DNA of 20,850 bases, taken from a virus. A program made the position numbers and the translations under genes. Positions within the stretch are counted from its first letter, which is position 1; the number at the start of each line of letters is the position of its first letter. Below, piece after piece: positions 798 to 19,413 of this stretch. The stretch spans positions 1 to 20,850 of the IMG/VR virus record IMGVR_UViG_3300032286_000149; one strand, written 5' to 3'. A model generated the notes under the pieces. That model was not told where the DNA came from, did not search any database, and saw only the letters and a program-made list of their open reading frames with translations.

Positions 798-1508
798 TTA
801 CCCCCTACCAGCGCGAAACGCCCTCGGAACAAACCGAATCGTAGCTTTCTCCCTATCCTCACCTGCGGCGAGGTCAAACTGTTCATCGTACGCTTGCTTT
901 AGCATAGGTAGCCGATCCATCAGTTCCGGCACTTTCATAGCGATATAGTACGCCAACCCTGCTACCAAGCAAGGCAAAAATCTGAAACTAATATCTGGGG
1001 TGTTAGCGCCCGTCCCGGCATCCTGAATCCTACGCATTCTCCAGTAACGGAAAATATAATAAGGATTACCCACAGCACCTTGATCTGGTACGGGCCATAC
1101 AGTAATCTGAGGAGCGGGTTGCAGTCGCTGCACCCAGACTTGAATCGGGCGGGCTTGAGTTATCTTGTTCGGAATACTAGCGTAGGTAGAAACGCTAATC
1201 CGAGAAATCGTCAAGTCAAACTGTGTCGATGGACTGCCTTGTCCCGTACGAATCACATGGTCAAGAAGGTCAATTGTATCTTCTGGAAGCGTGTAAGTAG
1301 ATACGCCTTGGACGAGGTTAATGTACCCCTCGTCGATAGTCCACATGTTGATGCCACGGTTTTGCCACTCGATGGTCATCAGGTTCATAGAACGGCGAGC
1401 AGTACGCAGGTCGTAACCCGACCGCATCTCCCGACCAGCACGCTCCCAAGCCTCTTCGGCTACCTCGGCGAAGTCAAGATTAAAACTAGTGGTGCCGGAA
1501 GTTGCCAT
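798..1508 (-). CDS. Head-tail connector/adaptor-like protein (P22 gp4 / T7 gp11 type), tentative
   Basis: A 236-residue protein with an N-terminal helical segment (EVAEEAWERAGRE), then a helix with MNLMTIEWQNRGINMWTIDE, a beta-rich centre (STYTLPEDTIDLLD; VWPVPD) and a C-terminal helical region (LAYYIAMKVPELMDRLP). This order, with a stretch where short helices set the plane of the ring and a TYTLP-type turn, is what I know from podoviral adaptor proteins such as P22 gp4 and T7 gp11, which sit under the portal and seal packaged DNA. Sequence identity to either is low, so the call rests on pattern and on its place in a virion gene cluster. ATG 1508-1506 overlaps the upstream TAA by one base (TAATG). 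A collar or neck protein of another type is the main alternative. Confidence 0.6.
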   Translation of the reverse strand: MATSGTTSFNLDFAEVAEEAWERAGREMRSGYDLRTARRSMNLMTIEWQNRGINMWTIDEGYINLVQGVSTYTLPEDTIDLLDHVIRTGQGSPSTQFDLTISRISVSTYASIPNKITQARPIQVWVQRLQPAPQITVWPVPDQGAVGNPYYIFRYWRMRRIQDAGTGANTPDISFRFLPCLVAGLAYYIAMKVPELMDRLPMLKQAYDEQFDLAAGEDREKATIRFVPRAFRAGRG

Positions 1509-1741: not shown

Positions 1742-2016
1742 TCTCGATACCCGCCGCCAGCAGCCTTGTACTTCTTAGCAACAAGCTGTGCTTTACGGGC
1801 TGACCACTGCCCTGCACCCGTGCCTTGCGTTGCTGCCGCCTTTACCTGAGACACAATCCGTTTACGCAGACTGGGTTTAGTATAGTTACCGGCAGCATTT
1901 ACCCCGCCGCCCTTAGCATACAAGTCAACAGAGTCGGGGTTGTCCTTGCGCTTAATTACTTTCGGCTTAGGCATTTTGCTGGGATTGATGTCCCCCATAC
2001 CCCGACTTGCTCTCAT
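1738..2016 (-). CDS. Small basic protein with KGG and GQWSARKAQ motifs (92 aa)
   Basis: A 92-residue basic protein. The N-terminal half holds a Lys-rich stretch (PKPKVIKRKD) and YAKGGGVN; the C-terminal half reads NYTKPSLRKRIVSQVKAA, then GAGQWSARKAQLVAKKYKAA and GGGYRD. The TKP..R.R / GQWSARKAQ / GGGY arrangement recurs in hypothetical proteins of cyanophages and giant viruses in my memory; no biochemical role is known to me. The N-terminal ATG (2016-2014) shares four bases with the preceding stop (ATGA). It belongs to the run of short basic proteins in this operon that share a KGG-V motif, which supports a common virion-related role. The exact start is supported by coupling rather than by a strong ribosome-binding site. 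Confidence 0.75.
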   Translation of the reverse strand: MRASRGMGDINPSKMPKPKVIKRKDNPDSVDLYAKGGGVNAAGNYTKPSLRKRIVSQVKAAATQGTGAGQWSARKAQLVAKKYKAAGGGYRD

Positions 2017-2474
2017 ACCATCCGACCCTTAGTCTTGCCACGTTGAGCGCAACCATCAGCGCGTGAAGAAGCCTTGCCGACAGAACCACCTTTTTTCATC
2101 CCCACTGCGGTAAGCGCATCTCCAATAAACTTAGGGGCACGTTCCCGCATAGAAGCACGTGCTTCTTTATTAGGACGACCCAAATACCGTTCGGCAAACG
2201 GCATATCTTCTTTTGGCTTATCGCTAGGCTGCGGTACATCTTTGTACCCTTTCCGCATAGCTTCAACCATATCAGGAGACTGCATGCCCTCGGACGCTTT
2301 TGTATACCCTTTAGGCTCACTTGTAGTGGGTGGTGTAGGTTCACGTCCCGGTTTGTACTCCGGAGCTTCTCCACCTTTACGTGTTAAACCCCGTTTGGCG
2401 TTCAGATAGTCCCGCAGATTGGTGTAGTCAGATGCCTCAAGCTCGGCTTTGCTAACAATTGGGGTTTTAGCCAT
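2013..2474 (-). CDS. Small basic phage protein with repeated C-terminal RADGCAQRGKTKGRMV peptide (153 aa)
   Basis: A 153-residue protein, polar and Pro/Lys/Glu-rich, with no recognisable enzyme motif. It starts MAKTPIVSKAELEASDY, has a long low-complexity middle (GYTKASEGMQSPD; PQPSDKPKED), an ERYLGRP segment and a short hydrophobic helix (FIGDALTAVG), then MKKGGSVGK and the 16-residue tail RADGCAQRGKTKGRMV. Exactly that tail ends the next upstream gene (2477-2758), with only synonymous codon differences. The start follows the upstream TAA by 2 nt (TAATCATG). Function unknown; the shared tail suggests recognition by, or binding to, a common partner such as the capsid interior or DNA. Confidence 0.75.
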   Translation of the reverse strand: MAKTPIVSKAELEASDYTNLRDYLNAKRGLTRKGGEAPEYKPGREPTPPTTSEPKGYTKASEGMQSPDMVEAMRKGYKDVPQPSDKPKEDMPFAERYLGRPNKEARASMRERAPKFIGDALTAVGMKKGGSVGKASSRADGCAQRGKTKGRMV

Positions 2475-2476
2475 GA

Positions 2477-2758
2477 TTACACCATCCGACCTTTAGTTTT
2501 GCCTCGCTGGGCGCAACCATCAGCACGCTTAGAGACTGAGCCGCCTTTGGCAAATATTGGTTTACCTTTCTTGGGCATGGCCGGAGTCGTTGGACCTTCG
2601 TAGTCCATTGGAGGCTGACCTTTGTCAGCGGTGTAGATGTCCGAATCCGGTAATCTGGGCTTGCGCTTACGTGCCAACGGTGGCATTGGCTTGGTTGGAC
2701 CCTCATCCGGCATCGGAGGCTGGCCCATTTTAGCGGTGTAGATATCTGTTTGTGCCAT
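2477..2758 (-). CDS. Small basic phage protein with internal tandem repeat and shared C-terminal peptide (93 aa)
   Basis: A 93-residue protein made of two tandem copies of a module, residues 5-24 (DIYTAKMGQPPMPDEGPTKP) and 40-59 (DIYTADKGQPPMDYEGPTTP), 35 residues apart, each followed by a basic Pro/Lys stretch. Then come FAKGGSVSK and the tail RADGCAQRGKTKGRMV (residues 78-93), identical to the tail of the downstream gene. AAGGAA lies 5 nt upstream of ATG 2758-2756, a good ribosome-binding site. No known domain is recognised; it is probably largely disordered. A virion-internal or scaffold-related role is inferred from the operon. The longer open frame 2467-2880 in another frame is a shadow. 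Confidence 0.75.
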   Translation of the reverse strand: MAQTDIYTAKMGQPPMPDEGPTKPMPPLARKRKPRLPDSDIYTADKGQPPMDYEGPTTPAMPKKGKPIFAKGGSVSKRADGCAQRGKTKGRMV

Positions 2759-2767
2759 GATAGTTCC

Positions 2768-3439
2768 TTAACAGGCCATGCCGCCTTTGTTGAGCATCTT
2801 GCCTTTAGTCTTACCAGACTTGGTAATACCATCTGCACGGGAAGAAGCAGATCCGCCAGCAGCCATTTTCTTGACGCCACCGCCTTTCTTCATACCCATC
2901 TCAGCTTTCTCGTGCTTGATCATAGCGGCAGGGGCACCCTTCTTTTTCATGAAGGCTACTTCTTTGCCAACCATTGCTTTAGACTCTTTCACGTTACCAC
3001 CTTTTTTAAGGGCCGCAGCGGGTACAGTTCCACGAGTTTCGCGGCGACCTTCATTCATTACTTCACGTTGAACCGCCTGTGCTTTCTTTGCGGCTACGGG
3101 GTCATAAGGGATGCTGTATTTTTGCTTAACATAATCTTTAGGGTTATCGCTGTTCACGTCGTTGTAGTGCCTTATTGCGGCACGGCCCGACGGGGTATAG
3201 TCTTCATAACCGTAGTATTCGCGTTTTTTCCTATACGCTTCATTATCTTTCATATCTTTTTCAGACATTCCACCTTCAGCGTACTTTTTCACATTACCAC
3301 CCTTACCAAATTTACGGCCTTTGTCGGCCTGTGAAAAGTCCTCGCCCACGGACTTGGGAACGCCAACCTTTTTGGCAAAGGCGGGGCTGTGGGCTACAGC
3401 CTCCATGAAATTGTGCTGCTTCTTTGATGTACTAGGCAT
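2768..3439 (-). CDS. Lys/Gly-rich phage protein with multiple KKGG-V motifs (223 aa), DUF3008-like N-terminus
   Basis: The N-terminus MPSTSKKQHNFMEAVAHSP followed by FAKKVGVPKSVGEDF resembles DUF3008-type small proteins (memory of the MPA/SKSKxQQRFM pattern). The rest is very basic and repetitive: FGKGGNVKK, YAEGGM, LKKGGNVKE, MKKGGGVKK and the C-terminal SRADGITKSGKTKGKM followed by LNKGGMAC. The SRADG...GKTKGKM segment is a diverged version of the tail shared by the next two genes. A central segment (EYYGYEDYTPSGRAAIRHYN) is more structured. The ATG lies inside the preceding gene with an 8-nt overlap. Function is unknown; a head-interior, DNA-binding or ejection-related role fits the charge and context. 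Paralogy with its two downstream neighbours is likely, at least in the C-terminal part. Confidence 0.75.
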   Translation of the reverse strand: MPSTSKKQHNFMEAVAHSPAFAKKVGVPKSVGEDFSQADKGRKFGKGGNVKKYAEGGMSEKDMKDNEAYRKKREYYGYEDYTPSGRAAIRHYNDVNSDNPKDYVKQKYSIPYDPVAAKKAQAVQREVMNEGRRETRGTVPAAALKKGGNVKESKAMVGKEVAFMKKKGAPAAMIKHEKAEMGMKKGGGVKKMAAGGSASSRADGITKSGKTKGKMLNKGGMAC

Positions 3440-3669: not shown

Positions 3670-3930
3670 TCAGCACTTCCACGCCCGAAGGCTTTTGTTA
3701 ATCCGGGAGTCGGGGTCGTTGGCTGTTTTGGAAGAAGTAAGTTTTGACTTCATGCCGCTCATTCGCGCACAGAAGCTCTTCCTTCTCCCGGCGTCTTCGG
3801 TCGTTTTTGGTTTCGGGGCGGGGGGCTTTAAGTTCATCCCTTGTGATTTCGCGGACGCACGCCCCTTCGCGTTCAGACCCCCCTTGGGGTCCTTTCCTTC
3901 TGCTCTTTGCCATGCAGGGGATTTAGCCAT
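3670..3930 (-). CDS. Small basic phage protein, DUF6321-like (86 aa)
   Basis: Begins MAKSPAWQRAEGKDPKGGLN and ends with a conserved-looking block GRRKSFCARMSGMKSKLTSS, then NDPDSRINKSLRAWKC, with cysteines at 54 and 86. I recall this SPAWQR.EGK.P.GGLNAKGRAS ... RRKSFCARM.GM ... LR.W.C pattern from a family widespread in marine and freshwater phages (I believe DUF6321, from memory). Function unknown. Very basic, no membrane segment. ATG 3930-3928 overlaps the end of the preceding gene by 8 nt (ATGGCTAA). The two conserved cysteines could bind metal with a partner or be structural. Confidence 0.75.
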   Translation of the reverse strand: MAKSPAWQRAEGKDPKGGLNAKGRASAKSQGMNLKPPAPKPKTTEDAGRRKSFCARMSGMKSKLTSSKTANDPDSRINKSLRAWKC

Positions 3931-4220: not shown

Positions 4221-4712
4221 TTAGTTCTGCTGTACAGAAGGATACATCACGCCGTCCGAACCTTTGACGATGTACTGCACGGTAATTTGTGCAGCGCCGC
4301 CGCTAGCTGTACCAGCACAAGCGTAGATAACCTGAAGGATCAGATCGGTAGAGCCGACGTTCAGAAGCGTAGCCATGTTAGTGCCCGATAGCGTGGTCGT
4401 TGCGCGACCGACAGCCAGAGGGGTAGTAGTTGCACCACCAACTGTAGCCAACGAAGTGCCGCCAGCGGTCTGAATAGTGATCGTATTACCCGTGGTTCCA
4501 GAGAACGCCGTGGTGATATCACAGAAGATATTAGTAATCTGAGCACCAGCCGGGATAACGGCAAATGTGGTAGCCGTCGTGGTATTAACCGTCATGGTCC
4601 CAGTCTGAGCAACAGTAGTTGAACCCAGATTCTGAATCGTACCCGCAGTCGTACCGGTCGTGTTCTTAACAGTGCCGAGTAGCCAAGGGCCGAGGTGAGT
4701 AGCGAAACCCAT
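4221..4712 (-). CDS. Thr/Ala/Gly-rich structural phage protein (163 aa)
   Basis: Begins MGFATHLGPWLLGTVKNTTG and is dominated by Thr, Ala, Gly and Val with beta-strand periodicity (GTMTVNTTTATTFAVIPAG; NTITIQTAGG; ITVQYIVKG). Such composition is typical of secreted-free beta-rich virion proteins (decoration or fibre type). It is the first gene after the terminator that follows the capsid gene, so it needs read-through or its own promoter. A GAGGA ribosome-binding site lies 6 nt upstream of ATG 4712-4710. A TATAAA sequence on the minus strand about 75 nt upstream has no good -35 partner. No named family recognised. Confidence 0.7.
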   Translation of the reverse strand: MGFATHLGPWLLGTVKNTTGTTAGTIQNLGSTTVAQTGTMTVNTTTATTFAVIPAGAQITNIFCDITTAFSGTTGNTITIQTAGGTSLATVGGATTTPLAVGRATTTLSGTNMATLLNVGSTDLILQVIYACAGTASGGAAQITVQYIVKGSDGVMYPSVQQN

Positions 4713-4855: not shown

Positions 4856-5767
4856 TCAGCTAGATCCGGGTGAACCGAAAATACCGAGCGGATCAGACAC
4901 GCCGAACGAATAACGCTCACGTGCCTTGTAACGGATGTTACCCGTATCAAAGTCACCATCATGCGACGTAGCCAGCGGGACACGCACAAAGTGCTTCAGT
5001 CCGTTAGGAACGTCAGTGGTCAGGAACCAGCCGTTGTTGTCGGTCAAGAAGTGGTTAACAGTGTAACCACCGGGGATCGAACCGTTGTTCTTCAGCGCGT
5101 TCACATCGTTATCGGTAGTACCGACACGCAGTTCCGTCTCAAGGAGGCGGGTTGCAACGAACATCAGAGCAGGAGGAATGACCAGCTTGACAGGCTTGGC
5201 GGCGATCAGCAGACCACGTTCGTCCGTCCATGCAGCGATCTGAATAACAGCAGACTCCAAAGAAGTCTCGTTCAGGTCAGCAGCCGTGGAAGGCGTGTTG
5301 CTGTTAGTACCACCAGAAACCAGCGGGTGAGCCGTGCTGAACAGGGGCTGACCGTCACCATACCTAAACGCGGCGTTAAAACCGTTGTTCAGAATGTTGG
5401 CAGCTTTAACCTGCTTGGTGTACGCCATTGCACGAGCCAATGCTTTGGTGTAACGGCTAGACAAGCTGTCATACAGGTTGTCTTCCATTGCTTCTTCGGT
5501 AACCGAGAAGCCCATAGCGATGGTTTCGTGGTTGTAACGTGCGGTCCATGCTTCCTGTGCGTTGTCGTACGAGAGAGCTTGACCTTCGTTCTTAACAGGC
5601 GCGGCACCAAAGCCTGACAGCTTGGTTTCTTCTTCAAAAGAACGCTCGGAGTTTTCCGTATCGAAAATCTCTTTATGCTCTTCGGGATACCGCTTGTACT
5701 CCAGACCGAACAGAGCGTTAAGCCCCGGGAGGAGTTCCTTTAGTAGTTGGGCGCGTGAAATAGCCAT
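4856..5767 (-). CDS. Major capsid protein (303 aa)
   Basis: A 303-residue protein whose features fit a tailed-phage major head subunit: a helical N-terminal region (QLLKELLPGLNALFG), a central MGFSVTEEAMEDN and ALARAMAYTKQVKAANILN helix, then PLFSTAHPLVSGG, a motif I associate with Mu gpT-like capsid proteins, followed by WTDERGLLIAAKPVKLVIPP and VGTTDNDVNALKN. The HK97 fold is expected but not shown by sequence alone. It is followed by a strong terminator and preceded by structural genes and the scaffold-like gene, the expected position. ATG 5767-5765 has a GGAG ribosome-binding site on the minus strand (TAAGGAGTAAATCATG). No truncation is seen. Confidence 0.85.
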   Translation of the reverse strand: MAISRAQLLKELLPGLNALFGLEYKRYPEEHKEIFDTENSERSFEEETKLSGFGAAPVKNEGQALSYDNAQEAWTARYNHETIAMGFSVTEEAMEDNLYDSLSSRYTKALARAMAYTKQVKAANILNNGFNAAFRYGDGQPLFSTAHPLVSGGTNSNTPSTAADLNETSLESAVIQIAAWTDERGLLIAAKPVKLVIPPALMFVATRLLETELRVGTTDNDVNALKNNGSIPGGYTVNHFLTDNNGWFLTTDVPNGLKHFVRVPLATSHDGDFDTGNIRYKARERYSFGVSDPLGIFGSPGSS

Positions 5768-7138: not shown

Positions 7139-8038
7139 TTATTTCCTCATATCCAGAGCAACTTGTTTAGCATATGCCTCAAGAGGCACGCCTAGCCGTT
7201 TCGCAATAGCCACTTGACTACTAGTCAGCACGATTTTTCGAGGCGCTGTGCTGCGGGTAGCAGGAGCTACTACATTACTTCGACGGCGTTGCTTGAACTG
7301 ATCTGGGAAGACTTCGCGCATACGAGAGTTAATTCTCTCGTAGTAGTCGTCGCTACGGGGATCAACCCCCTGTTTGACCAGCTTCTGATGCAACCCCAAT
7401 GCGAAGCTAGTCATTTCATCGTCTGAGCCAAACCACGCATTAGCTTGTTGCCACTCGTGCGCTTTCGGATCAGCCGGTACTGGGGCGTTAGATTGACGTT
7501 CTACAGGAGTTTCTGTCTCTTGTAAAGGGGGTAATCTAAAATTGCTAACACGCTCGGTTTTAGACTTGGCCGCGACCAATTCCTCTTGCGCGTCAACCAT
7601 TGCATCAGAATCACCCGACTCATACGCTTGCTTGTATTTGCGCTTGGCCTCGTCAAGTTCCTGTGCGGCAACCCGTCTAGCCTGTTCAAGCAATACTTCC
7701 TGATTCTTGTTAACCGTACCCTTTAGCTCGTTGTTCTCACCAACTAACTTGCGGGCAAGGCGTTCAAGCTCTTCCTTTTCACGTAGAGCGGCCTCTTTAG
7801 CACGTCTTTCGTCGTGATAACCCTTGTTAAAGTGCTGAATACGCTTACGAACTTTCTCGGAATAGTCCTGCAATTCTTCATCAGTTACTTCTTCTGGCGG
7901 ATCAGATGCCTTCCGGTTCCGGTCTTTCTCGGGCGTATCGTCAACGATTTCAATTTCCACATCAACATCATCCGATGCAGTAACTGTTACACCTTCCGAT
8001 TCAACCTCATCGGGAAACTTGTATTCGTCCTTTTCCAT
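7139..8038 (-). CDS. Scaffold-like head assembly protein (299 aa)
   Basis: An acidic N-terminus (VDVEIEIVDDTPEKD) is followed by a long charged helical stretch from about residue 50 to 170 with heptad-like spacing (ERRAKEAALREKEELERLAR; ARRVAAQELDEAKRKYKQA), a probable coiled coil. The C-terminal part has a folded, less charged region (WFGSDDEMTSFALGLHQKLV) and a basic end (RKIVLTSSQVAIAKRLG). Highly charged, coiled-coil, between portal/chaperonin genes and the capsid gene: this fits a procapsid scaffolding protein, which guides capsid assembly and then leaves. No protease motif is seen. The call rests on composition and gene order. ATG 8038-8036 lies 3 nt after the upstream stop. Confidence 0.7.
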   Translation of the reverse strand: MEKDEYKFPDEVESEGVTVTASDDVDVEIEIVDDTPEKDRNRKASDPPEEVTDEELQDYSEKVRKRIQHFNKGYHDERRAKEAALREKEELERLARKLVGENNELKGTVNKNQEVLLEQARRVAAQELDEAKRKYKQAYESGDSDAMVDAQEELVAAKSKTERVSNFRLPPLQETETPVERQSNAPVPADPKAHEWQQANAWFGSDDEMTSFALGLHQKLVKQGVDPRSDDYYERINSRMREVFPDQFKQRRRSNVVAPATRSTAPRKIVLTSSQVAIAKRLGVPLEAYAKQVALDMRK

Positions 8039-8041
8039 AGT

Positions 8042-8410
8042 TTAAGCCCTTGTAATGCCTTGTGGATCGGAAACAACAGCCTCAATCGAGTCGTCGTTCA
8101 TTAGGCGGTATTCCGAATTATTGAAACGGAACCGAGTACCGGTGTTAGCGCGAAACAATACGTAGTCTCCGACTTCACACCAAGGACCGGTTGGGTACCG
8201 ATCAGGGTCGGAATAGGCTTGTGACCCCATGTCCAATACGAGTCCAATCATTGACAAGACTTGCTCGGCATGTTTCGTATTCTCGGCTTTAACTAGGCCC
8301 GATTCATACGTATCCTCGATAGTAGGCAGGGCGATTAGCAGCTTGTAACCAACGGGGATGGGAAGTTGCGCTTCCATTTCAGCATCAGTCACAGTTTGGG
8401 CATCAGTCAT
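8042..8410 (-). CDS. GroES-like (Cpn10) co-chaperonin, phage-encoded (122 aa)
   Basis: From ATG 8410-8408 the protein has the GroES order: a first strand (PVGYKLLIALP, residues 19-29), a loop matching the mobile loop position (DTYESGLVKAENT, 33-45), MIGLVLDMGS as the V(L/I)xVG-like strand, then WCEVGDYVLFRANTG (77-91) like VGDIVIFNDGYG of GroES, and a closing MNDDSIEAVV (104-113) like MSESDILAIV. Such a protein caps GroEL during folding; phage versions (T4 gp31, RB49 CocO) are needed for capsid protein folding. No GroEL-like gene is in the window, so it would use the host's. The start overlaps the upstream stop by 8 nt; upstream in-frame ATGs at 8416 and 8419 cannot be excluded. Confidence 0.75.
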   Translation of the reverse strand: MTDAQTVTDAEMEAQLPIPVGYKLLIALPTIEDTYESGLVKAENTKHAEQVLSMIGLVLDMGSQAYSDPDRYPTGPWCEVGDYVLFRANTGTRFRFNNSEYRLMNDDSIEAVVSDPQGITRA

Positions 8411-8600
8411 CTTCATCATCCATAAAAGTACGCGAAAGGTCTTGGATTTCCATACGTGCAAGGGACAGACCTCGAATGATCCCGCACGCCGCTTTATATT
8501 CGGCAAAGTCTTTAGCTCCACCGGATACAAGTGACTCCATAGCAGCGGTTTTATGCGCTTCTATCTTTTCAATCAGCACGTCAAAGACGGTTTTAGCCAC
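8403..8600 (-). CDS. Small acidic helical phage protein (65 aa), GTG start
   Basis: A 65-residue mostly helical protein: TVFDVLIEKIEAHKTAAMES, then FAEYKAACGIIRGLSLARME and an acidic end (FMDDEDD). I recall close relatives between portal and downstream head genes of many environmental phages, with no assigned function. The start is GTG (8600-8598), preceded by AGGGG 9 nt away; no in-frame ATG precedes it after the portal stop, and starting at the internal Met would lose most of the protein. Its end overlaps the co-chaperonin start by 8 nt, so the two are probably coupled. Confidence 0.7.
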   Translation of the reverse strand: MAKTVFDVLIEKIEAHKTAAMESLVSGGAKDFAEYKAACGIIRGLSLARMEIQDLSRTFMDDEDD

Positions 8601-8618: not shown

Positions 8619-11117
8619 TTATCCTCCCGAATTGGGAGGCTTCTGTGTTACGTGTTTCATAACATCCACTCGCATCTTCTGTTGGGACTGTCGATCCTGA
8701 GAAGACGTTTGGTTAGCATTACGCTGGGACTCGACTTGCAGTCGTTCCCGATCAAGCCCAAGTTTCTGTTCCTGTAGCTGGAGATCAGCCTGATCCTTGG
8801 CTTGTTTTCTTGCCACTTCAGCTTGCTTGACCTTGAGTTCGCCCTGTTGAAGCTGGAACATCGGGTCTTGGGCTTGCTGTTGTGCTTGCTGCTGCGCTGC
8901 TTGCTGCTGGTGTTCCTGAGCAAGCTGTTTCCCGGCCTCGGCCACAAGCCGAGCCAACTGAACCTCGATCTCTTCGGGCAATTCTTCTCCCGGTACAGGC
9001 AACGGAGCACCGAGGCGTTCCTCGATCTGCTTGCGGTAGGAAAAGCCCAAGTGTTCAGCGATGTGTGCTTGCAACGCAGCCATAAGCTGCTGTGCTTGCG
9101 GGTTCTGCCCCATCGTCTGAGCGATCATCGGGTCTTGCATAAAGCTAGTATGTGCAGCGATATGCGCGTCGTGGTCCTGATAAATAAACGCTTTGACCGG
9201 CTTGCCAATCAGCACATTCATGTTCTCAGACACGGGATCTGTGGGTTTCTGGTCATCCTCGATGGGGACCAGCTTGTCCGCGTTCTTAACCCCCAGCACC
9301 TCGATCATTTGACGGTGCAGTTGTGGCAGGTTGTAAATCTGCGGGGCTTGCTGTGCCATCTGGAGCACTGCCTGATACTGAACTACCCGCTGCGCCATTG
9401 TGGACGAGTTCGGGTCCGACACGGGTATTACTTCTACCATGTCATAGTCAGACTGCTTGATCTTGCGATCAGTCGTGTCTTGCGGGTCGTAGCTGTACGC
9501 CTCTGGCGTATAGTCTCGGATGAGTTCTTTCAGGAGCTTAAACTCCTGCTTCATCGCGTAGTGAACCCGCGCTTGCACCGCAGCCATCGGCTTGAGTGTG
9601 CGCTCCAGCAAGGCCAGAGTTGTTCCGACCGGGGCTTGGGCAGACATGTCCGAGATGTTCATGTCGCTAATTGCACCCAACCGGCGACCATCCTCGTTAA
9701 TCTGCGTCATCAGCGCAAGCAGGACCTGACTAGGCTCCTTGTAAGGCAACATCATGATGTTGTCCTTAATTGCCCCGCTCGGGATATCCACGTCACGGAA
9801 CTCGCCCGGACCAATCGGCGTATCATCACCCTTGACCCGCATACCACGAGCCTTCAAGCCCCCCGGCAGGTTAGACAGCGTACCCGCATCCACAAGCTGA
9901 CGAAGTAGTGACGTTCCCGCTCGGGAATATCCACCGATAATGTGGATCAAGCCAAGACCGTAGAACCCAAAACCGGGGACATAGACATAATGGACAAAGT
10001 GCTGACGTTTTTTATGCAGGGGATCATCTGGCTCCCAGTTGCGCCTAATAGATAACACCTTCTCCGTAGCACGCTCTATTGTTACTACGTAAGGTTTGGC
10101 AAGCTGCTCGACCTCTTTGGAGGCATCCTCGCTCTCGTCGTCGCCGATATCACTACCATCCTCAATCTCGTCCTCGTCTACACCCTCAATCACCAAGTCG
10201 GCATGGACCTCGTAGATTGTGTAGCGGTCGTCATCGGTCAGCGAATACCCACCTTCTTCGGCTTTCTTCTTCTCAATATCAGATGGGAATGACTGAGGCT
10301 CGCCCAAGTCCACATCACAGTAAAAACCGCTAGCTTGTAACCGCTTGATTTCATTCTCGGTTTTGCGCATCACGTGCGTGATCCGCTCTGCCGATTCAAG
10401 ATTAGAAGCACCGTATGGCACTAGCATGTCTTCTGCTGGGATAAAGATAGCCACTTGCCGACCCAGTGCAGGATCAATGTAGACTTTCTTAAATGCCGAA
10501 CCAGCAAGACCCAAGGCATACAGCATCCGCTCATGTTCTGGGCGATACTCAACCATGCGCTCGGTTAACTGATAGTTCATGTCCTCTTTTACACGTCCGG
10601 CTGCTTCTTCCTTTTCACGTGTAACCTGACCCATGACCTTGGTCTTAACCGGCCCCATTGATGGAAAAGTCTCTGACATAGCTTCGGCTTGGAATCGAAT
10701 CGCAGCTTCTGCCAGCACGGAAGAGAACGCACCGCATGCATCTTCCCAAGGCTCCGTGCGCTCTTCGTACCTAAACCCAAGGACTTCCAGCCCTTTAACG
10801 AACGTATCTGCCCAGTCTTTGCGGTTGTTAATATCCGCATCAATTAGCTCGATAAGATCGGATGCTAGGGTTTGTTGCACGCCTTCATCTAGGGTTTCTG
10901 CCAGATTCTCGTCAAAGCCACCTTCTTCGGCATCATCTTCGGCAGTCAAGATAATTTCAACGCTACCGTCATCAAGAGTAACCATATCAGGGTCGATAAT
11001 ATCAATCTCCAACATGCTGTCGAGATCTTCATCAGAAATACCTCCCATGTCATCTAATTCAGCTTGGAGTCCACGAGGGGCTGCGTATGGCCCTTTGTCA
11101 ATCGAATCTACTGGCAT
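8619..11117 (-). CDS. Portal protein (832 aa)
   Basis: A long portal of the size seen in podoviral (P22- or T7-like) lineages. An acidic N-terminal region (residues 20-80) is followed by a helical stem region, a core with QVAIFIPAEDMLVPYGASNL, an acidic insert (about 311-338), then YVPGFGFYGLGLIHIIGGYS with LLRQLVDAGTLSNLPGG, the conserved block I associate with this portal family. The C-terminal 200 residues are helical and Gln-rich (HQQQAAQQQAQQQAQDP) and form a coiled-coil barrel-like tail. The portal is the ring at the capsid vertex through which terminase packs DNA. It lies 9 nt downstream of terL with AAAGG ahead of ATG 11117-11115. The gene is complete. The open frame on the opposite strand at 8802-9908 is a shadow. 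Confidence 0.85.
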   Translation of the reverse strand: MPVDSIDKGPYAAPRGLQAELDDMGGISDEDLDSMLEIDIIDPDMVTLDDGSVEIILTAEDDAEEGGFDENLAETLDEGVQQTLASDLIELIDADINNRKDWADTFVKGLEVLGFRYEERTEPWEDACGAFSSVLAEAAIRFQAEAMSETFPSMGPVKTKVMGQVTREKEEAAGRVKEDMNYQLTERMVEYRPEHERMLYALGLAGSAFKKVYIDPALGRQVAIFIPAEDMLVPYGASNLESAERITHVMRKTENEIKRLQASGFYCDVDLGEPQSFPSDIEKKKAEEGGYSLTDDDRYTIYEVHADLVIEGVDEDEIEDGSDIGDDESEDASKEVEQLAKPYVVTIERATEKVLSIRRNWEPDDPLHKKRQHFVHYVYVPGFGFYGLGLIHIIGGYSRAGTSLLRQLVDAGTLSNLPGGLKARGMRVKGDDTPIGPGEFRDVDIPSGAIKDNIMMLPYKEPSQVLLALMTQINEDGRRLGAISDMNISDMSAQAPVGTTLALLERTLKPMAAVQARVHYAMKQEFKLLKELIRDYTPEAYSYDPQDTTDRKIKQSDYDMVEVIPVSDPNSSTMAQRVVQYQAVLQMAQQAPQIYNLPQLHRQMIEVLGVKNADKLVPIEDDQKPTDPVSENMNVLIGKPVKAFIYQDHDAHIAAHTSFMQDPMIAQTMGQNPQAQQLMAALQAHIAEHLGFSYRKQIEERLGAPLPVPGEELPEEIEVQLARLVAEAGKQLAQEHQQQAAQQQAQQQAQDPMFQLQQGELKVKQAEVARKQAKDQADLQLQEQKLGLDRERLQVESQRNANQTSSQDRQSQQKMRVDVMKHVTQKPPNSGG

Positions 11118-11126
11118 AGCCTACCT

Positions 11127-12674
11127 TTAATAATAGCCGCCACGGCGGGACTTAAAGTAACGAGTTTCTTCTTGCTCATCGGATGGCAGACGTATAAATC
11201 CGCCTTGCCTAAATCGCATCAGTGCCATTACGGTGGAGTCAACCAAGTCGTCATTACTGACAAATGGAAAACCTGCAACCTCTTCAACCACTTCCTCTGC
11301 CCAACGAGTCTGGGGCACCCATACCAAACCTGACCGTATAATGTCAGCTACAGAGTTAAGTCGCGCCATCTTATCACCGGTACCACGGTGAGGGGTAAAC
11401 TCTTGTATTGGCAAACCCGTGCGTCTAATCTCCTGATACAACTGCGTACCACTAGATTTTTTCTCGACGATAAACGCATCCGGCTCCCATTCTTTCCACT
11501 CCCGGTAGCACAACTCTTTTAGCTCGGGGAACTCCACGCGCTTCTTAATAGCATTCAGCAAGATGATGTTATGGGCATCGGTTTCTTTGTTGAGGAACAC
11601 GCCCCATGTGGTTAGCGCCGTAAAGTCAGCACGGTTATTAGTTTCTGCCGCGCTATCTAGCGACATAATCAGGTAAGAACAGCTTGGCGGGTCCTCTTTC
11701 TCCCACGTATTCCACCATTCCCGCTTGACAACCGCCGCTTCCTCGGCAGTGGGATTCTGCTGAAACTGTGCATTCCACTGGAAAACAGGCATAGAAGCCT
11801 TCGTTCGCAGCAGTGCGGGCATATCAAAAAACTCAGGCCACAGGGCTTTTTCGCTGATTTCACCCGTTTTCTTGTTCTTAACCTCCAAAATAGCCGGGAA
11901 TTCGACCACCTCGTACTGGTCAGCCCCACTGTTTTGCGTCATATCCCGTACGACACGACCCGTTAAATCGTCTAAATGCCATCTAGTTTGTATAATAGCT
12001 ACACGGCCCCCCGGCATCAGGCGGGTCCGAGCACCAAAAGTGAACCACTCGTAGGCTCTGTCGAAGATTTCAAGGTTGCCGTTGATGATGTCCTGCTCGT
12101 TATGCGGATCGTCTACTAATAGTAAGTCTGCTCCACGACCTGCAAGGGCCGAACCTACACCACAAGCGAAGTACTCGCCGCCTACGTTAGTATTCCACCT
12201 TCCCGCTGACTTGCTATCCGCAGCAAGGTTAACTGTAGGAAATATTTGCCGGTAGGCTTCCGTATCAATGATGTTTCGCACCTTCCGACCGAAGTCCACG
12301 GCAAGATCCGTGGTGTGGGACACCATCAGCACCTTCTTATTAGGTTGCCTACCGATGAACCAAGCCGGGAAGTATATGGAAACTAGCTGACTTTTGCCGT
12401 GGCGAGGGGGAATATTGACGCAAACACGGTCTTTTGACCCGTCTGCTAGCTGCATCAGCAGGTTAGCAAGGATTCTGTGGTGTTTTCCGACCTTATAGTC
12501 GGGCTGCATGTGCTTACAGAACTCAATCAAGTCGTCATAGCACGACTGCACATGCTTGCGAGTGCTCAGAGTGTCTGCAATTTGCAGGATTTCGGTCTGT
12601 TCTTCCTCGGAAAACTCGTCCAAACGGGCCAAAAGCTCGTCAACTTCCTCGTCTGAGAAGTCTAAATCAATCAT
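11127..12674 (-). CDS. terL: Terminase large subunit (515 aa)
   Basis: The DNA-packaging motor. ATPase motifs: PPRHGKS (residues 89-95, Walker A variant), LLLVDDP (184-190, Walker B, followed by a His-Asn-Glu run) and IIQTRWH (227-233, coupling motif III). The nuclease domain shows LIMSLDSAAE (Asp340), FIVEKKSSG (Glu404) and DDLVDSTVMAL (Asp475/476 and Asp479), the RNase H-like acidic set. The N-terminal 40 residues are acidic and helical. Length and the RHGKS Walker A fit the terminase family typical of environmental phages. ATG 12674-12672 overlaps terS by 8 nt (ATGATTGA). All key residues are present, so the gene should be functional. It cuts and translocates phage DNA together with the portal. 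Confidence 0.95.
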   Translation of the reverse strand: MIDLDFSDEEVDELLARLDEFSEEEQTEILQIADTLSTRKHVQSCYDDLIEFCKHMQPDYKVGKHHRILANLLMQLADGSKDRVCVNIPPRHGKSQLVSIYFPAWFIGRQPNKKVLMVSHTTDLAVDFGRKVRNIIDTEAYRQIFPTVNLAADSKSAGRWNTNVGGEYFACGVGSALAGRGADLLLVDDPHNEQDIINGNLEIFDRAYEWFTFGARTRLMPGGRVAIIQTRWHLDDLTGRVVRDMTQNSGADQYEVVEFPAILEVKNKKTGEISEKALWPEFFDMPALLRTKASMPVFQWNAQFQQNPTAEEAAVVKREWWNTWEKEDPPSCSYLIMSLDSAAETNNRADFTALTTWGVFLNKETDAHNIILLNAIKKRVEFPELKELCYREWKEWEPDAFIVEKKSSGTQLYQEIRRTGLPIQEFTPHRGTGDKMARLNSVADIIRSGLVWVPQTRWAEEVVEEVAGFPFVSNDDLVDSTVMALMRFRQGGFIRLPSDEQEETRYFKSRRGGYY

Positions 12675-13300: not shown

Positions 13301-13585
13301 GGGGTATATTTTTGGTAGGGGGGTGCTTTCTAGGAAGGGGGTGGTTTCAAAAAGTAGGGCATCGTTTGTCTGAAATAGTAAGTCTACGGTGGCCGGGGGA
13401 CCCAATGCCATAAGGGGGTATACCACCCCGGTGGGTCTGCCATCCTACCCGTTCGGCTCGACCGCGCCCCCCGATGCCGGTTTCATACCACGAAGTAGAA
13501 CGAAAATAAATCGGCTGAATGGGGCGCCATTGTGGGCGATCTTCCGTATAACTAAATCCATGCAAGGCGATTCGCGCCTCGCTAT

Positions 13586-13602
13586 GTTAGGGATTCCCTA
13601 AC
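13586..13602. repeat. GTTAGGG palindrome, copy 1
   Basis: GTTAGGGATTCCCTAAC; symmetry extends two bases each side (AT...AT), so the palindrome is 21 bp with one central base. It lies 28 nt upstream of the ATG at 13631, between any promoter and the ribosome-binding site. Confidence 0.9.
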
Positions 13603-13630
13603 ATCAACTGCCTACCTTGGAGAATCCATC

Positions 13631-14143: not shown

Positions 14144-14144
14144 T

Positions 14145-14161
14145 GTTAGGGATTCCCTAAC
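14145..14161. repeat. GTTAGGG palindrome, copy 2
   Basis: GTTAGGGATTCCCTAAC with the same two-base extension on each side. It begins in the TGA stop of the gene at 13631 and lies 3 nt ahead of a terminator stem. Confidence 0.9.
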
Positions 14162-14164
14162 ATT

Positions 14165-14464: not shown

Positions 14465-14488
14465 CGTCTGCACTTTTGTGCATGGCAT

Positions 14489-14505
14489 GTTAGGGATTCC
14501 CTAAC
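14489..14505. repeat. GTTAGGG palindrome, copy 3
   Basis: GTTAGGGATTCCCTAAC, preceded by AT and followed by AG, so symmetry stops one base earlier than in copies 1 and 2. No gene starts close downstream. Confidence 0.9.
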
Positions 14506-14507
14506 AG

Positions 14508-14537: not shown

Positions 14538-14544
14538 TAACTAT

Positions 14545-15065: not shown

Positions 15066-15119
15066 AGTTTGGTACAGTCTACTTCGATACCACGTGGCTA
15101 CCACCAACCCACACACCAC

Positions 15120-15167
15120 TACCACCCCAAATCACGGGAGGTGTATACGTCATTAACCAAACCACAC
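15120..15167. repeat. 48-bp direct repeat, first copy
   Basis: Begins TACCACCCCAAATCACG, contains GGTGTATACGTCATTAAC and ends AAACCACAC. The second copy is 75 bp downstream at 15195-15242, differing in only a few bases. The partial inverted repeat CACCCC/GAGGTG is imperfect in this copy. Confidence 0.85.
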
Positions 15168-15194
15168 ACCACTACCACCCCCGAGTCGAATCCA

Positions 15195-15242
15195 TACCAC
15201 CCCAAATCACGAGGGGTGTATACGTCATTAACTAAACCACAC
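15195..15242. repeat. 48-bp direct repeat, second copy
   Basis: As the copy at 15120-15167; here the inner inverted repeat is perfect (CACCCC, 9-nt spacer, GGGGTG). It ends 16 nt before the -35 box of the promoter at 15259, so it could be an activator or repressor site. Confidence 0.85.
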
Positions 15243-15315: not shown

Positions 15316-15324
15316 GACAGAACT

Positions 15325-15341
15325 GTTAGGGATTCCCTAAC
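15325..15341. repeat. GTTAGGG palindrome, copy 6
   Basis: GTTAGGGATTCCCTAAC, in the leader 43 nt upstream of ATG 15385. It is followed 2 nt later by another perfect hairpin, GAAGGGCG/CGCCCTTC around ATA (15344-15362). Confidence 0.9.
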
Positions 15342-15384
15342 AAGAAGGGCGATACGCCCTTCAAGCAACCACCTTGGAGTAGCT

Positions 15385-15868: not shown

Positions 15869-15885
15869 GTTAGGGAATCCCTAAC
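15869..15885. repeat. GTTAGGG palindrome, copy 7
   Basis: GTTAGGGAATCCCTAAC, central base A instead of T. In the leader 30 nt before ATG 15916. Confidence 0.9.
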
Positions 15886-15915
15886 AAGACATCGACCAAA
15901 CCTTGGAGCTACGAA

Positions 15916-16859: not shown

Positions 16860-16918
16860 AAACTCCCTGTTTGTTCTTCGTTCGCTTACTACTACTTATA
16901 TTTACCTTGGAGTTTCAC

Positions 16919-18025
16919 ATGAACGCTTTCGCTAACAAGCTCTCCCTCCTGCAAGCTGCTAACTTCATTGCCGCAATGGGCAAGAAGCGCACCGTACTAC
17001 TGCGTGGCCCGATGGGTTCGGGCAAATCGTCAACCCTGAAAACGCTCGGCAAGCGTTACCCCAACCATGCAATGATTTACTTCGATTGCACTACCAAGAT
17101 GCCCGGGGACTTGTCTATGCCTCGCATGGCAAGCATTGATTCACAAGGGTACGTCACGTTCGTACCTCACGAGGAGCTTGGTCTCCACCTGCGTAAACCC
17201 CTCATACTCATGATCGATGAGTTGGGCAAGGCCGACCCGGGGGTATTGAAGGGCATGCTTCGTCTAATGCTTGAGCGTATTGGCCCCGGTGGTATCGAGT
17301 TGCACCCTGATACCTTATTGTTTGCTACCACTAACAAGGCAAGCGAGGGGTTGGGCGATCTTATTCCAGCGCATGCTAGGAATCGCATCATCATCATCGA
17401 AACCCGCACCTCAACGGCAGACGAGTGGATCGAGCAGTTTGCAATCAATGCAGGTATTCACCCTGCCGTTACGAGGTGGGTAAACGAGACGCCCCAAGTC
17501 TTCGCCGACTTCGATGAGGTCAAGGACCCCAAGGACAACCCGTACATCTTCCACCCAAAACAGCAACGCGAATCGTTTTGCACGGGTCGCTCTATCCATG
17601 CTGCATCTGACATCCTCATTGAAGCAGAGGACAACCCTGATCTGATTGATCAGCAGACCCTTGTCGCTGCGTTGACAGGCACTATCGGACCCGACGCTGC
17701 CGCTGGCTTATTGATTTGGTACAAGACAAGTCAGCAGATGCCGACCATTGCATCCATTAAAGCAGACCCAATGAGTGCGAAGGTTCCTACATCTCAGGCA
17801 GTACGGTGCATGATCATCACCAAGGTGCTCGGCATGGTGGACCGTGAGTTCATTGAACCGTGGATGCAATACCTTGGACGCCTACCCGACGAGGAGCAAG
17901 CGATGTTCGGCAAGGGTGCGACTGCTAAGTCGTACGACGAGAAGCGCCAGCAGATCGTGGTCACAAGCCACGGGTACACACAATGGGCATTGAAGAATGC
18001 TTACATGCTACGGAAAGATCAGTAA
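16919..18025 (+). CDS. MoxR/CobS-type AAA+ ATPase (368 aa)
   Basis: Walker A GPMGSGKSS (residues 30-38), Walker B LILMIDELGKAD (95-106, with Glu101), sensor-1 LLFATTN (133-139) and IPAHARNR with candidate arginine fingers (Arg154, Arg156). The pattern matches MoxR/CobS-like ATPases, which remodel proteins or load metal with VWA partners. The C-terminal half (YLGRLPDEEQAMFG) is family-specific and not assigned. A longer frame starts at 16871, but ACCTTGGAG lies 6 nt before ATG 16919, which begins the conserved region; that start is chosen. It probably acts on the VWA/metallopeptidase encoded next door. No CobN-like chelatase subunit is present, so cobalamin synthesis is unlikely. All ATPase residues are intact. 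Confidence 0.9.
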   Translation: MNAFANKLSLLQAANFIAAMGKKRTVLLRGPMGSGKSSTLKTLGKRYPNHAMIYFDCTTKMPGDLSMPRMASIDSQGYVTFVPHEELGLHLRKPLILMIDELGKADPGVLKGMLRLMLERIGPGGIELHPDTLLFATTNKASEGLGDLIPAHARNRIIIIETRTSTADEWIEQFAINAGIHPAVTRWVNETPQVFADFDEVKDPKDNPYIFHPKQQRESFCTGRSIHAASDILIEAEDNPDLIDQQTLVAALTGTIGPDAAAGLLIWYKTSQQMPTIASIKADPMSAKVPTSQAVRCMIITKVLGMVDREFIEPWMQYLGRLPDEEQAMFGKGATAKSYDEKRQQIVVTSHGYTQWALKNAYMLRKDQ

Positions 18026-18081
18026 GGATCAGTAATAGAACCCGACTAAACTAAACAATACAAAGGACATGAGGTATACAC

Positions 18082-19413
18082 ATGAGCATCTTCGCTAAAC
18101 TAACCGAGGAGCAGCGCGTCAAGAAGGCATGCGGTGACATCCTTGAGAAAGCACCCGAGTTCAGGGGTGTCTTGCAGATCGGTACTAAGGAGGTAGTCGA
18201 GGACTGTCCGACTGCACGAACGAATGGACGGGACGAGTGGTATGGGCGGGCGTTCGTCAAGTCTCTCACCGATCCCGAGCTTCGCTTCCTCATCATGCAT
18301 GAGGTGGGTCACAAGATGTTGCAACACCTGACTACTTGGTCAGAGTTGCACGAGGAGGACCCTGACTGTGCTAACCGTGCTTGTGATTACTATCTTAATC
18401 TGTGGTTGACCAACGACTACGGTACGGATGGGTGGATCGTGATGCCCAAGGGTGGGATGTTGGACGAGCGGTTCGCTGGCATGAACAGCAAGCAGATCTA
18501 CAAGTTGCTTCGCAAGGAGCAGGAACAGGAGCAAGAGGATGGCGAAGACTCGGATGACGGGGGGAATGGCAATGCTGAACAAGATAGCGGTAAGCCAAGC
18601 GAGGGCGAGCAAGACATGGATGGAGAGGACGGGCAACCATCCGAGCAAGGCAAACCAAGCAAGCAAGGTAAACCCAAGGACAAGCAACACGGGTTCGACG
18701 AGCACGACTGGGAAGGTGCTCAAGAACTAAGCAAGGAGGAGCAAGAAGAACTAGCGGAGCAGATCGACACCGCCTTGCGTGAGACTGAGCTTATGGCTAG
18801 CAAGAATGGCACAGGGGGTAACCGTGTGATCAAGGACATCTTGCAGTCCAAGGTCCGGTGGGAGGACGAGCTACGTGAGATCCTGACTGCGATGTGTCCG
18901 GGTACTGAGTATCAAACGTGGGCACGTCCCAACCGCAGGTTCATGGGTCAGCAAGTCGAGGTGGGTGATGTGATGGAGGATGTGTATATGCCTAGCACGT
19001 ACAGTCAGACCATCAAGGAGATGGTCATTGCCATCGACATGTCAGGCAGTATCGGGGATTCCTTGCAGTCTGTGTTCCTCGGCGAAGTGGCGAAGATAGC
19101 AGCAGCTATCAAGCCAGAGCAGGTGCGTGTCATCTACTGGGACACGAGTGTGTGTAGTGAGGAGATCTACAAGGGTAGTGAGGTGCAGGATATCGTCAAG
19201 TGTACTAAGCCCAAGGGCGGTGGGGGTACGGATGTGAACTGTGTAACACAGTACATGCAGCAGTATGGGATCAAGCCCGAGGTTGCCATCGTGCTGACTG
19301 ACGGTGATCTCTATGCCGGATGGGGTACGTGGTCCTGTCCGGTGGTGTGGGCGATTGCAGATAACCCGAGTGCGTGTCCTACCGTGGGCCGCACCGTACA
19401 TGTGGAGGTGTGA
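18082..19413 (+). CDS. HEXXH metallopeptidase-like plus VWA-domain protein (443 aa)
   Basis: N-terminal domain: LIMHEVGHKMLQH with zinc-binding HEVGH (residues 73-77), followed by CANRACDYYLNLWL (97-110), which matches the second part of the DUF2201 N-terminal metallopeptidase-like domain. A highly acidic, Gln/Glu/Asp/Gly-rich linker spans about 145-225. C-terminal VWA domain: MIDAS motif DMSGS (319-323), Thr383 in GGGGTDV and Asp407 in TDGD. VWA domains bind partners through a metal, usually a MoxR ATPase, encoded just upstream here. GAGG lies 7 nt before ATG 18082; the 56-nt gap holds a short direct repeat GATCAGTAA. The composite could be a phage protease, a remodelling factor or an anti-host effector; which is unknown. 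The whole protein is present. Confidence 0.85.
   Translation: MSIFAKLTEEQRVKKACGDILEKAPEFRGVLQIGTKEVVEDCPTARTNGRDEWYGRAFVKSLTDPELRFLIMHEVGHKMLQHLTTWSELHEEDPDCANRACDYYLNLWLTNDYGTDGWIVMPKGGMLDERFAGMNSKQIYKLLRKEQEQEQEDGEDSDDGGNGNAEQDSGKPSEGEQDMDGEDGQPSEQGKPSKQGKPKDKQHGFDEHDWEGAQELSKEEQEELAEQIDTALRETELMASKNGTGGNRVIKDILQSKVRWEDELREILTAMCPGTEYQTWARPNRRFMGQQVEVGDVMEDVYMPSTYSQTIKEMVIAIDMSGSIGDSLQSVFLGEVAKIAAAIKPEQVRVIYWDTSVCSEEIYKGSEVQDIVKCTKPKGGGGTDVNCVTQYMQQYGIKPEVAIVLTDGDLYAGWGTWSCPVVWAIADNPSACPTVGRTVHVEV

What the first reader, a model, noticed from the sequence alone, without database searches (positions are those of the whole stretch)
2013..2527. Identical 16-residue C-terminal peptide on two neighbours, differing only by synonymous changes
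RADGCAQRGKTKGRMV ends both the gene at 2013 and that at 2477. Across the 16 codons I count seven differences, all silent, plus different stop codons. That means the copies are not a recent duplicate but are kept identical at the protein level. A third, diverged form (RADGITKSGKTKGKM) ends the next gene upstream near its C-terminus (2795-2839). A conserved basic tail in small virion-region proteins looks like a targeting or binding tag, for example for capsid interior or DNA.
Basis: seen in the sequence. Interest (0 to 1): 0.65.

Follow-up and report, generated by a model that had tools for sequence, protein, structure and literature searches.

The report
Shared peptide tag on phage head-region proteins
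A large group of uncultivated, mostly freshwater phages attaches the same 16-residue basic peptide, usually at the very end, to a changing set of otherwise unrelated small proteins encoded between the capsid and neck genes; this looks like an address label, perhaps for loading cargo into the virus particle, and such a label would make those unknown proteins testable.

Summary
RADGCAQRGKTKGRMV ends the genes at 2013 and 2477 with seven silent differences. The diverged copy at 2795-2839 is real. Among 248 tagged bodies, single-linkage clustering gives 90 groups, and 144 of 162 within-contig pairs share no detectable body similarity. The tag sits in one islet between the major capsid gene and the SU10-type adaptor gene. 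In 35 complete intervals fetched by capsid gene, not by tag, 25 carry the strict motif and the other 10 carry degenerate copies. D3, G4, G9, K10, T11 and G13 are near invariant; synonymous sites are close to saturated. The motif also occurs near the N-terminus of a neighbouring small protein and is sometimes present or absent on the same carrier, so it behaves as a movable module. AlphaFold gives it no confident fold. In terminal copies the last codons also look like the ribosome-binding site of the next, overlapping gene. Best explanation: a virion or prohead address peptide analogous to the T4 capsid-targeting sequence. Virion incorporation is inferred, not shown. No description was found in the papers searched.

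The parts
2013..2474 (-). 153-aa tagged protein; body of no known family, predicted mostly disordered
   Evidence: ORF; no PHROG or Pfam hit; AlphaFold mean pLDDT 65, pTM 0.27
2013..2063 (-). terminal tag copy 1, RADGCAQRGKTKGRMV, TGA stop overlapping the next start (ATG at 2016-2014)
   Evidence: sequence
2477..2758 (-). 93-aa tagged protein (body type DIYTAxMGxPPxDxEGP, 15 members found)
2477..2527 (-). terminal tag copy 2, identical peptide, 7 silent differences, TAA stop
2768..3439 (-). 223-aa carrier with the N-terminal 'QHN' head-protein module and a diverged tag
   Evidence: phrog_16759, 22033 and 25121; 72% identity of residues 1-43 to PHIKZ165.1
2795..2839 (-). diverged tag copy 3, RADGITKSGKTKGKM, followed by LNKGGMAC
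3670..3930 (-). DUF6321 protein; untagged here, carries the tag after SLRAWNC in some relatives
   Evidence: PF19846 1.7e-22; tagged relatives L004, L020, L033, L046, L058, L066, L077, L099
1738..2016 (-). g1738, phrog_17747, core gene downstream of the tagged islet
798..1508 (-). SU10-type adaptor, the far boundary of the islet
   Evidence: PF24175 2.7e-10
4856..5767 (-). major capsid protein, the near boundary of the islet
   Evidence: phrog_371, PF25209
244..423 (-). 59-aa protein; in some relatives this position holds a protein with the motif near its N-terminus

Best explanation
The 16-residue peptide is a transferable address tag. It recruits a quickly changing set of small, mostly disordered proteins, made together with the capsid proteins, to the assembling head (prohead interior, scaffold or neck) so that they are carried in the virion and possibly delivered into the host with the DNA, as the T4 capsid-targeting sequence does for internal proteins. 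Shown: the peptide family, protein-level constraint, body diversity, position flexibility and confinement to the head-to-adaptor islet. Inferred: binding to a phage-encoded head component, packaging and delivery.
For: Bodies unrelated, tag shared: 248 bodies in 90 groups; 144 of 162 within-contig pairs fall in different groups. A 92-protein alignment is invariant only in the tag and its KGG linker. Confined to one islet between capsid and adaptor genes. Present strictly in 25 of 35 complete intervals chosen by capsid gene, and degenerately in the other 10. Protein-level constraint. Tags of one contig resemble each other more than tags of different contigs even where their codons are saturated (0.746 against 0.708 expected, p=0.003), as expected if they share a partner. 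The motif occurs in other positions: near the N-terminus (23 proteins) and before C-terminal extensions. Two conserved carriers, QHN and DUF6321, have relatives in head-gene neighbourhoods of unrelated phages: DUF6321 between scaffold and capsid genes in Jormungand and near neck and terminase genes in S-RIM2; QHN beside capsid genes in BUCT555 and in a RaK2 protein annotated as virion structural. T4 precedent: diverse internal proteins sharing only a capsid-targeting sequence (PMC3012670, PMC9391042).
Against: No virion proteomics was found for any tagged phage. No partner was identified: correlations of tag variants with core proteins are weak (rho at most 0.13). No maturation protease was recognised near the capsid gene, unlike T4 and phiKZ. 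92 tagged proteins gave no credible match to a defence or counter-defence family. The T4 tag is N-terminal and cleaved; nothing shows cleavage here.
Confidence: 0.45

Rival explanations
1. The tag is a structural docking peptide that fixes accessory proteins to the outside of the head or to the portal-adaptor neck (decoration or cement function), with no cargo delivered.
For: Islet lies between capsid/cement and adaptor genes. Disordered bodies with a short docking end would suit flexible decoration. No protease or delivery machinery was seen.
Against: Bodies vary greatly and are mostly predicted disordered and basic (median net charge +4.8 per 100 residues, 87% disordered by a charge-hydropathy rule), which fits folded decoration domains poorly.
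Confidence: 0.22
2. The tag is a nucleic-acid-binding peptide: the tagged basic proteins condense or neutralise packaged DNA and need no specific protein partner.
For: Mean tag net charge +3.9 and basic bodies.
Against: Invariant D3, G4, G9, T11 and G13, and the I/C and hydrophobic last residues, are more specific than charge neutralisation needs. A within-contig resemblance of tags is not expected.
Confidence: 0.13
3. The tagged proteins act in the infected cell, not in the virion, and the tag is a localisation, stability or assembly-chaperone signal.
For: Most tagged proteins are of unknown function; a GroES-like gene lies in the same operon (8042-8530).
Against: Strict confinement to the head-to-adaptor islet, and head-module relatives of the QHN and DUF6321 carriers.
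Confidence: 0.13
4. The conserved ends are kept as DNA: a ribosome-binding site or recombination site for exchanging gene cassettes, not a peptide.
For: Codons 13-14 of terminal tags favour Shine-Dalgarno-like sequence: GGA/GGG at G13 in 129 of 189, against 19 of 189 at G4, 6 of 189 at G9 and 3 of 64 in extended tags. The next gene often starts at -4 or -1 of the stop.
Against: Synonymous sites are near saturation while the peptide is held. Copies far from any next start keep the peptide without the codon bias. Position 12 is often arginine coded CGN, which makes no Shine-Dalgarno.
Confidence: 0.04

Closest known systems
T4 capsid-targeting sequence (CTS) on internal proteins IPI, IPII, IPIII
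   Same: A short conserved peptide shared by a diverse, variable set of small phage proteins; described as the only conserved part of the T-even internal proteins (PMC3012670).
   Different: No sequence comparison with the T4 CTS was made. The T4 CTS is N-terminal and removed by a prohead protease (own knowledge); here the tag is mostly C-terminal, no cleavage or protease is shown, and the tag is confined to a lineage of about 60 kb phages.
phiKZ/SPN3US head and inner-body propeptides
   Same: Several virion cargo proteins in one phage carry targeting or propeptide regions (SPN3US papers found). The QHN module of the window carrier is 72% identical to PHIKZ165.1.
   Different: The QHN resemblance concerns another module of one carrier, not the tag. 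The phiKZ-type propeptides are N-terminal and processed (own knowledge).
DUF6321 (PF19846) phage proteins
   Same: The window gene 3670-3930 is a member (1.7e-22); relatives sit in head-gene neighbourhoods.
   Different: The domain itself is not the tag; the tag is appended to it only in some relatives.

Membership tests
T4-type capsid-targeting sequence | one short peptide shared by several otherwise unrelated proteins of the same phage | tested here: met
T4-type capsid-targeting sequence | N-terminal location | tested here: not met
   C-terminal in most; near the N-terminus in 23 proteins only
T4-type capsid-targeting sequence | carriers packaged into proheads and present in virions | not testable with these tools
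   no paper on a cultured tagged phage found
T4-type capsid-targeting sequence | cleavage by a prohead protease | tested here: inconclusive
   no protease family recognised among genes near the capsid gene in the window; weak similarity of the capsid protein to fused capsid-protease families only
T4-type capsid-targeting sequence | sequence relation to the T4 CTS | not tested
   no alignment to a T4 CTS was made; a tag query matched only three related cyanophage records among 50,697 phage records
DUF6321 (PF19846), gene 3670-3930 | match above the curated cut-off | tested here: met
   80.2 bits against 28.5
Ribosome-binding-site or recombination element | conservation at DNA level including synonymous sites | tested here: not met
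   pS 0.64-0.74; codon bias limited to the last codons

The most novel reading that the evidence does not exclude
A new, position-flexible virion-loading tag, unrelated to the T4 sequence, marks a quickly changing arsenal of dozens of protein families that these phages inject into their hosts, with each gene cassette ending in a combined address tag and ribosome-binding site for the next.
Probability: 0.27. Interest if true: 0.82.

Novelty: new variant of a known kind. Interest (0 to 1): 0.6.

Why it matters
If the tag is a loading signal, it labels candidate virion cargo across hundreds of uncultivated phages by sequence alone and would give a ready peptide for placing proteins in a phage head. 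It would also be a second case, beside T4, of a shared address on a fast-changing internal protein set, making it testable whether such sets evolve by arms race with hosts. Whatever the function, a peptide this constrained on some 90 body groups in one genomic islet needs an explanation.

Tried and rejected
Recent duplication of whole genes: rejected, because bodies of most within-contig pairs are unrelated and synonymous sites diverged (L056, with three DNA-identical tags, is an exception). DNA-level conservation: rejected except for the last codons. A folded mini-domain: AlphaFold on 43 C-terminal residues with 46 rows gave pLDDT 56 and pTM 0.14, so no fold search was run. A tagged O-acetyltransferase (L230, Patulibacter MAG) looked like a tag on a membrane enzyme, but the phage-like stretch is only about 130 bases inside bacterial sequence near the contig start, so it was set aside as a probable assembly chimera; it remains in alignment A2 as one row of 92. 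Weak PADLOC hits (E 0.004-0.009) and one LPXTG hit (E 7e-4) on single members were judged chance on low-complexity sequence. A related tag type in cultured phages (query from L143): one non-significant hit. Identifying the partner by co-divergence: only weak correlations. Solved structures: no credible match for the two tagged proteins searched, the capsid protein or the adaptor by sequence. Literature: no description of the motif in the papers searched.

Full report
Observation. The finding is correct at its coordinates. Both genes end in RADGCAQRGKTKGRMV; the 16 codons differ at seven positions, all silent, and the stops differ. The third copy lies at 2795-2839 in the gene 2768-3439 and is followed by LNKGGMAC.

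Setting. The window (20,850 bases, a virus record) carries a leftward head operon: terminase large subunit (11127-12674), portal (8619-11117), a GroES-like gene (8042-8530), a probable scaffold (7139-8038), capsid (4856-5767), a possible cement protein (4221-4712), DUF6321 (3670-3930), the QHN carrier (2768-3439), the two tagged genes, g1738, g1508 and an SU10-type adaptor (798-1508). 'Scaffold' and 'cement' rest on gene order and on annotation of relatives, not on a family match. The nearest named relatives by capsid are Pag-Yong1, MinM2 and Pra-JY27 (72%), then DSL-LC04, 023Pt_psg01 and HTVC023P/027P (63-64%).

The tag family. They hold 216 motif instances; 136 end exactly three residues after GKTKG. 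Of the 120 contigs, 119 also hold a homologue of the window's other core genes. The same pattern found only 34 stretches in 257 billion bases of prokaryote genomes, many of them chance, with true tags in a few MAG contigs. Among 50,697 named phage records only the three Pag-Yong1-like ones match a tag query, weakly, and a tag profile finds the Pag-Yong1 copy at 1.1e-10 but nothing in HTVC027P or DSL-LC04.

Prevalence without seeding bias. Loci were also fetched by the capsid protein. Of 35 complete capsid-to-adaptor intervals (window included), 25 hold at least one strict C-terminal tag and up to four. The other ten hold degenerate copies such as TRADGCVTKGHTKGKFV or SKDGVAVKGKTKGKMV. The tag is therefore close to universal in the sampled lineage, while the number of tagged genes varies. 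A profile search of whole long contigs finds it only in one short region of each.

Bodies. Single-linkage clustering of 248 bodies at E 1e-4 gives 90 groups, the largest of 98 possibly swollen by low-complexity linkage; 144 of 162 within-contig pairs fall in different groups. Of 92 tagged proteins scanned, only the DUF6321 and QHN carriers match phage families credibly. Bodies are basic and 87% are predicted disordered by a charge-hydropathy rule.

Constraint. In 189 terminal tags, D3, G4, G9, T11 and G13 are invariant, K10 is 99% K, position 5 is I or C, positions 8, 12 and 14 are basic, and 15-16 are mostly hydrophobic or C; part of this invariance is imposed by the search pattern. Nei-Gojobori proportions are pS 0.64 and pN 0.18 within contigs, and 0.74 and 0.24 between. 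Tags of one contig are more alike than expected even among pairs with under half of shared-residue codons identical (0.746 against 0.708, permutation p=0.003). This is a modest effect. It could reflect a shared partner or shared descent, and co-divergence with core proteins singled out no partner.

Movable module. The motif ends unrelated bodies; it is appended to DUF6321 in 12 cases but absent in the window's copy; it occurs as tandem copies; it precedes KMxxGGxC-type extensions; and in 23 small proteins it lies about six residues from the N-terminus, in the gene next to g430. A free C-terminus is thus not essential to whatever the motif does, if those copies share its function.

Second layer. 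In terminal tags codon 13 is GGA or GGG in 129 of 189, against 19 of 189 at G4, 6 of 189 at G9, 3 of 64 in extended and 3 of 29 in N-terminal or internal copies; AGR codes 47% of arginines at position 14 and 2-8% elsewhere. Next genes commonly start at -4 or -1 of the stop. The simplest reading is that the tag's end also forms the Shine-Dalgarno of the following gene, a usual demand in a packed operon. It does not explain the peptide.

Mechanism. The best explanation is an address peptide for the assembling head, by analogy with T4, where diverse internal proteins share only a capsid-targeting sequence (PMC3012670) and are injected with the genome (PMC9391042). Support by association: the QHN module recurs in jumbo phages, including PHIKZ165.1 and a RaK2 protein annotated as virion structural, and DUF6321 and QHN genes lie among head genes of unrelated phages. 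The RaK2 main text as searched did not confirm mass spectrometric detection of that ORF. Packaging, location and delivery are inferred. Docking on the outside or the neck, DNA binding and a non-virion role remain open.

Limits. Seeded sampling inflates conservation; contigs are partial; ORFs were called mechanically; the tag's structure is not predicted with confidence alone or in the full protein; no complex prediction or virion proteomics was available.

Noticed in passing
window 2768-3439 (residues 1-43): The N-terminal module of the QHN carrier is 72% identical to the 58-residue phiKZ protein PHIKZ165.1 and recurs in proteins of many jumbo phages (201phi2-1 gp383, RaK2 ORF156, EL, 121Q), so it is itself a mobile module across unrelated phages.
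   Followed up: partly
window 13585-13603, 14144-14162, 14488-14506, 15324-15342, 15869-15886: Five near-identical palindromes TGTTAGGGATTCCCTAACA, with two diverged ones near 14544 and 14682, spaced across the non-head region: possibly regulator binding sites.
   Followed up: no
window 16871-19413 (+): A neighbouring pair of an AAA ATPase (phrog_1297) and a DUF2201 metallopeptidase/VWA-like protein (Pfam 5.8e-24; PHROG calls its family HNH endonuclease), resembling a MoxR-VWA chaperone pair.
   Followed up: no
window 15103-15242 and 15244-15345/15788-15889: Direct repeats: two 48-nt copies (94%), two 26-nt copies and a 102-nt pair (79%) in a short stretch with no evident gene.
   Followed up: no
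L056:3132-4302: Three adjacent genes with unrelated bodies end in RADGCATKGKTKGRFV with no nucleotide difference in 48 bases, suggesting recent copying of the tag alone onto different bodies.
   Followed up: partly
L230:115-255: About 130 bases of phage-like sequence (tag end and start of the next ORF) within Patulibacter MAG sequence near a contig start, fused in frame to an acyltransferase: probable assembly chimera.
   Followed up: yes
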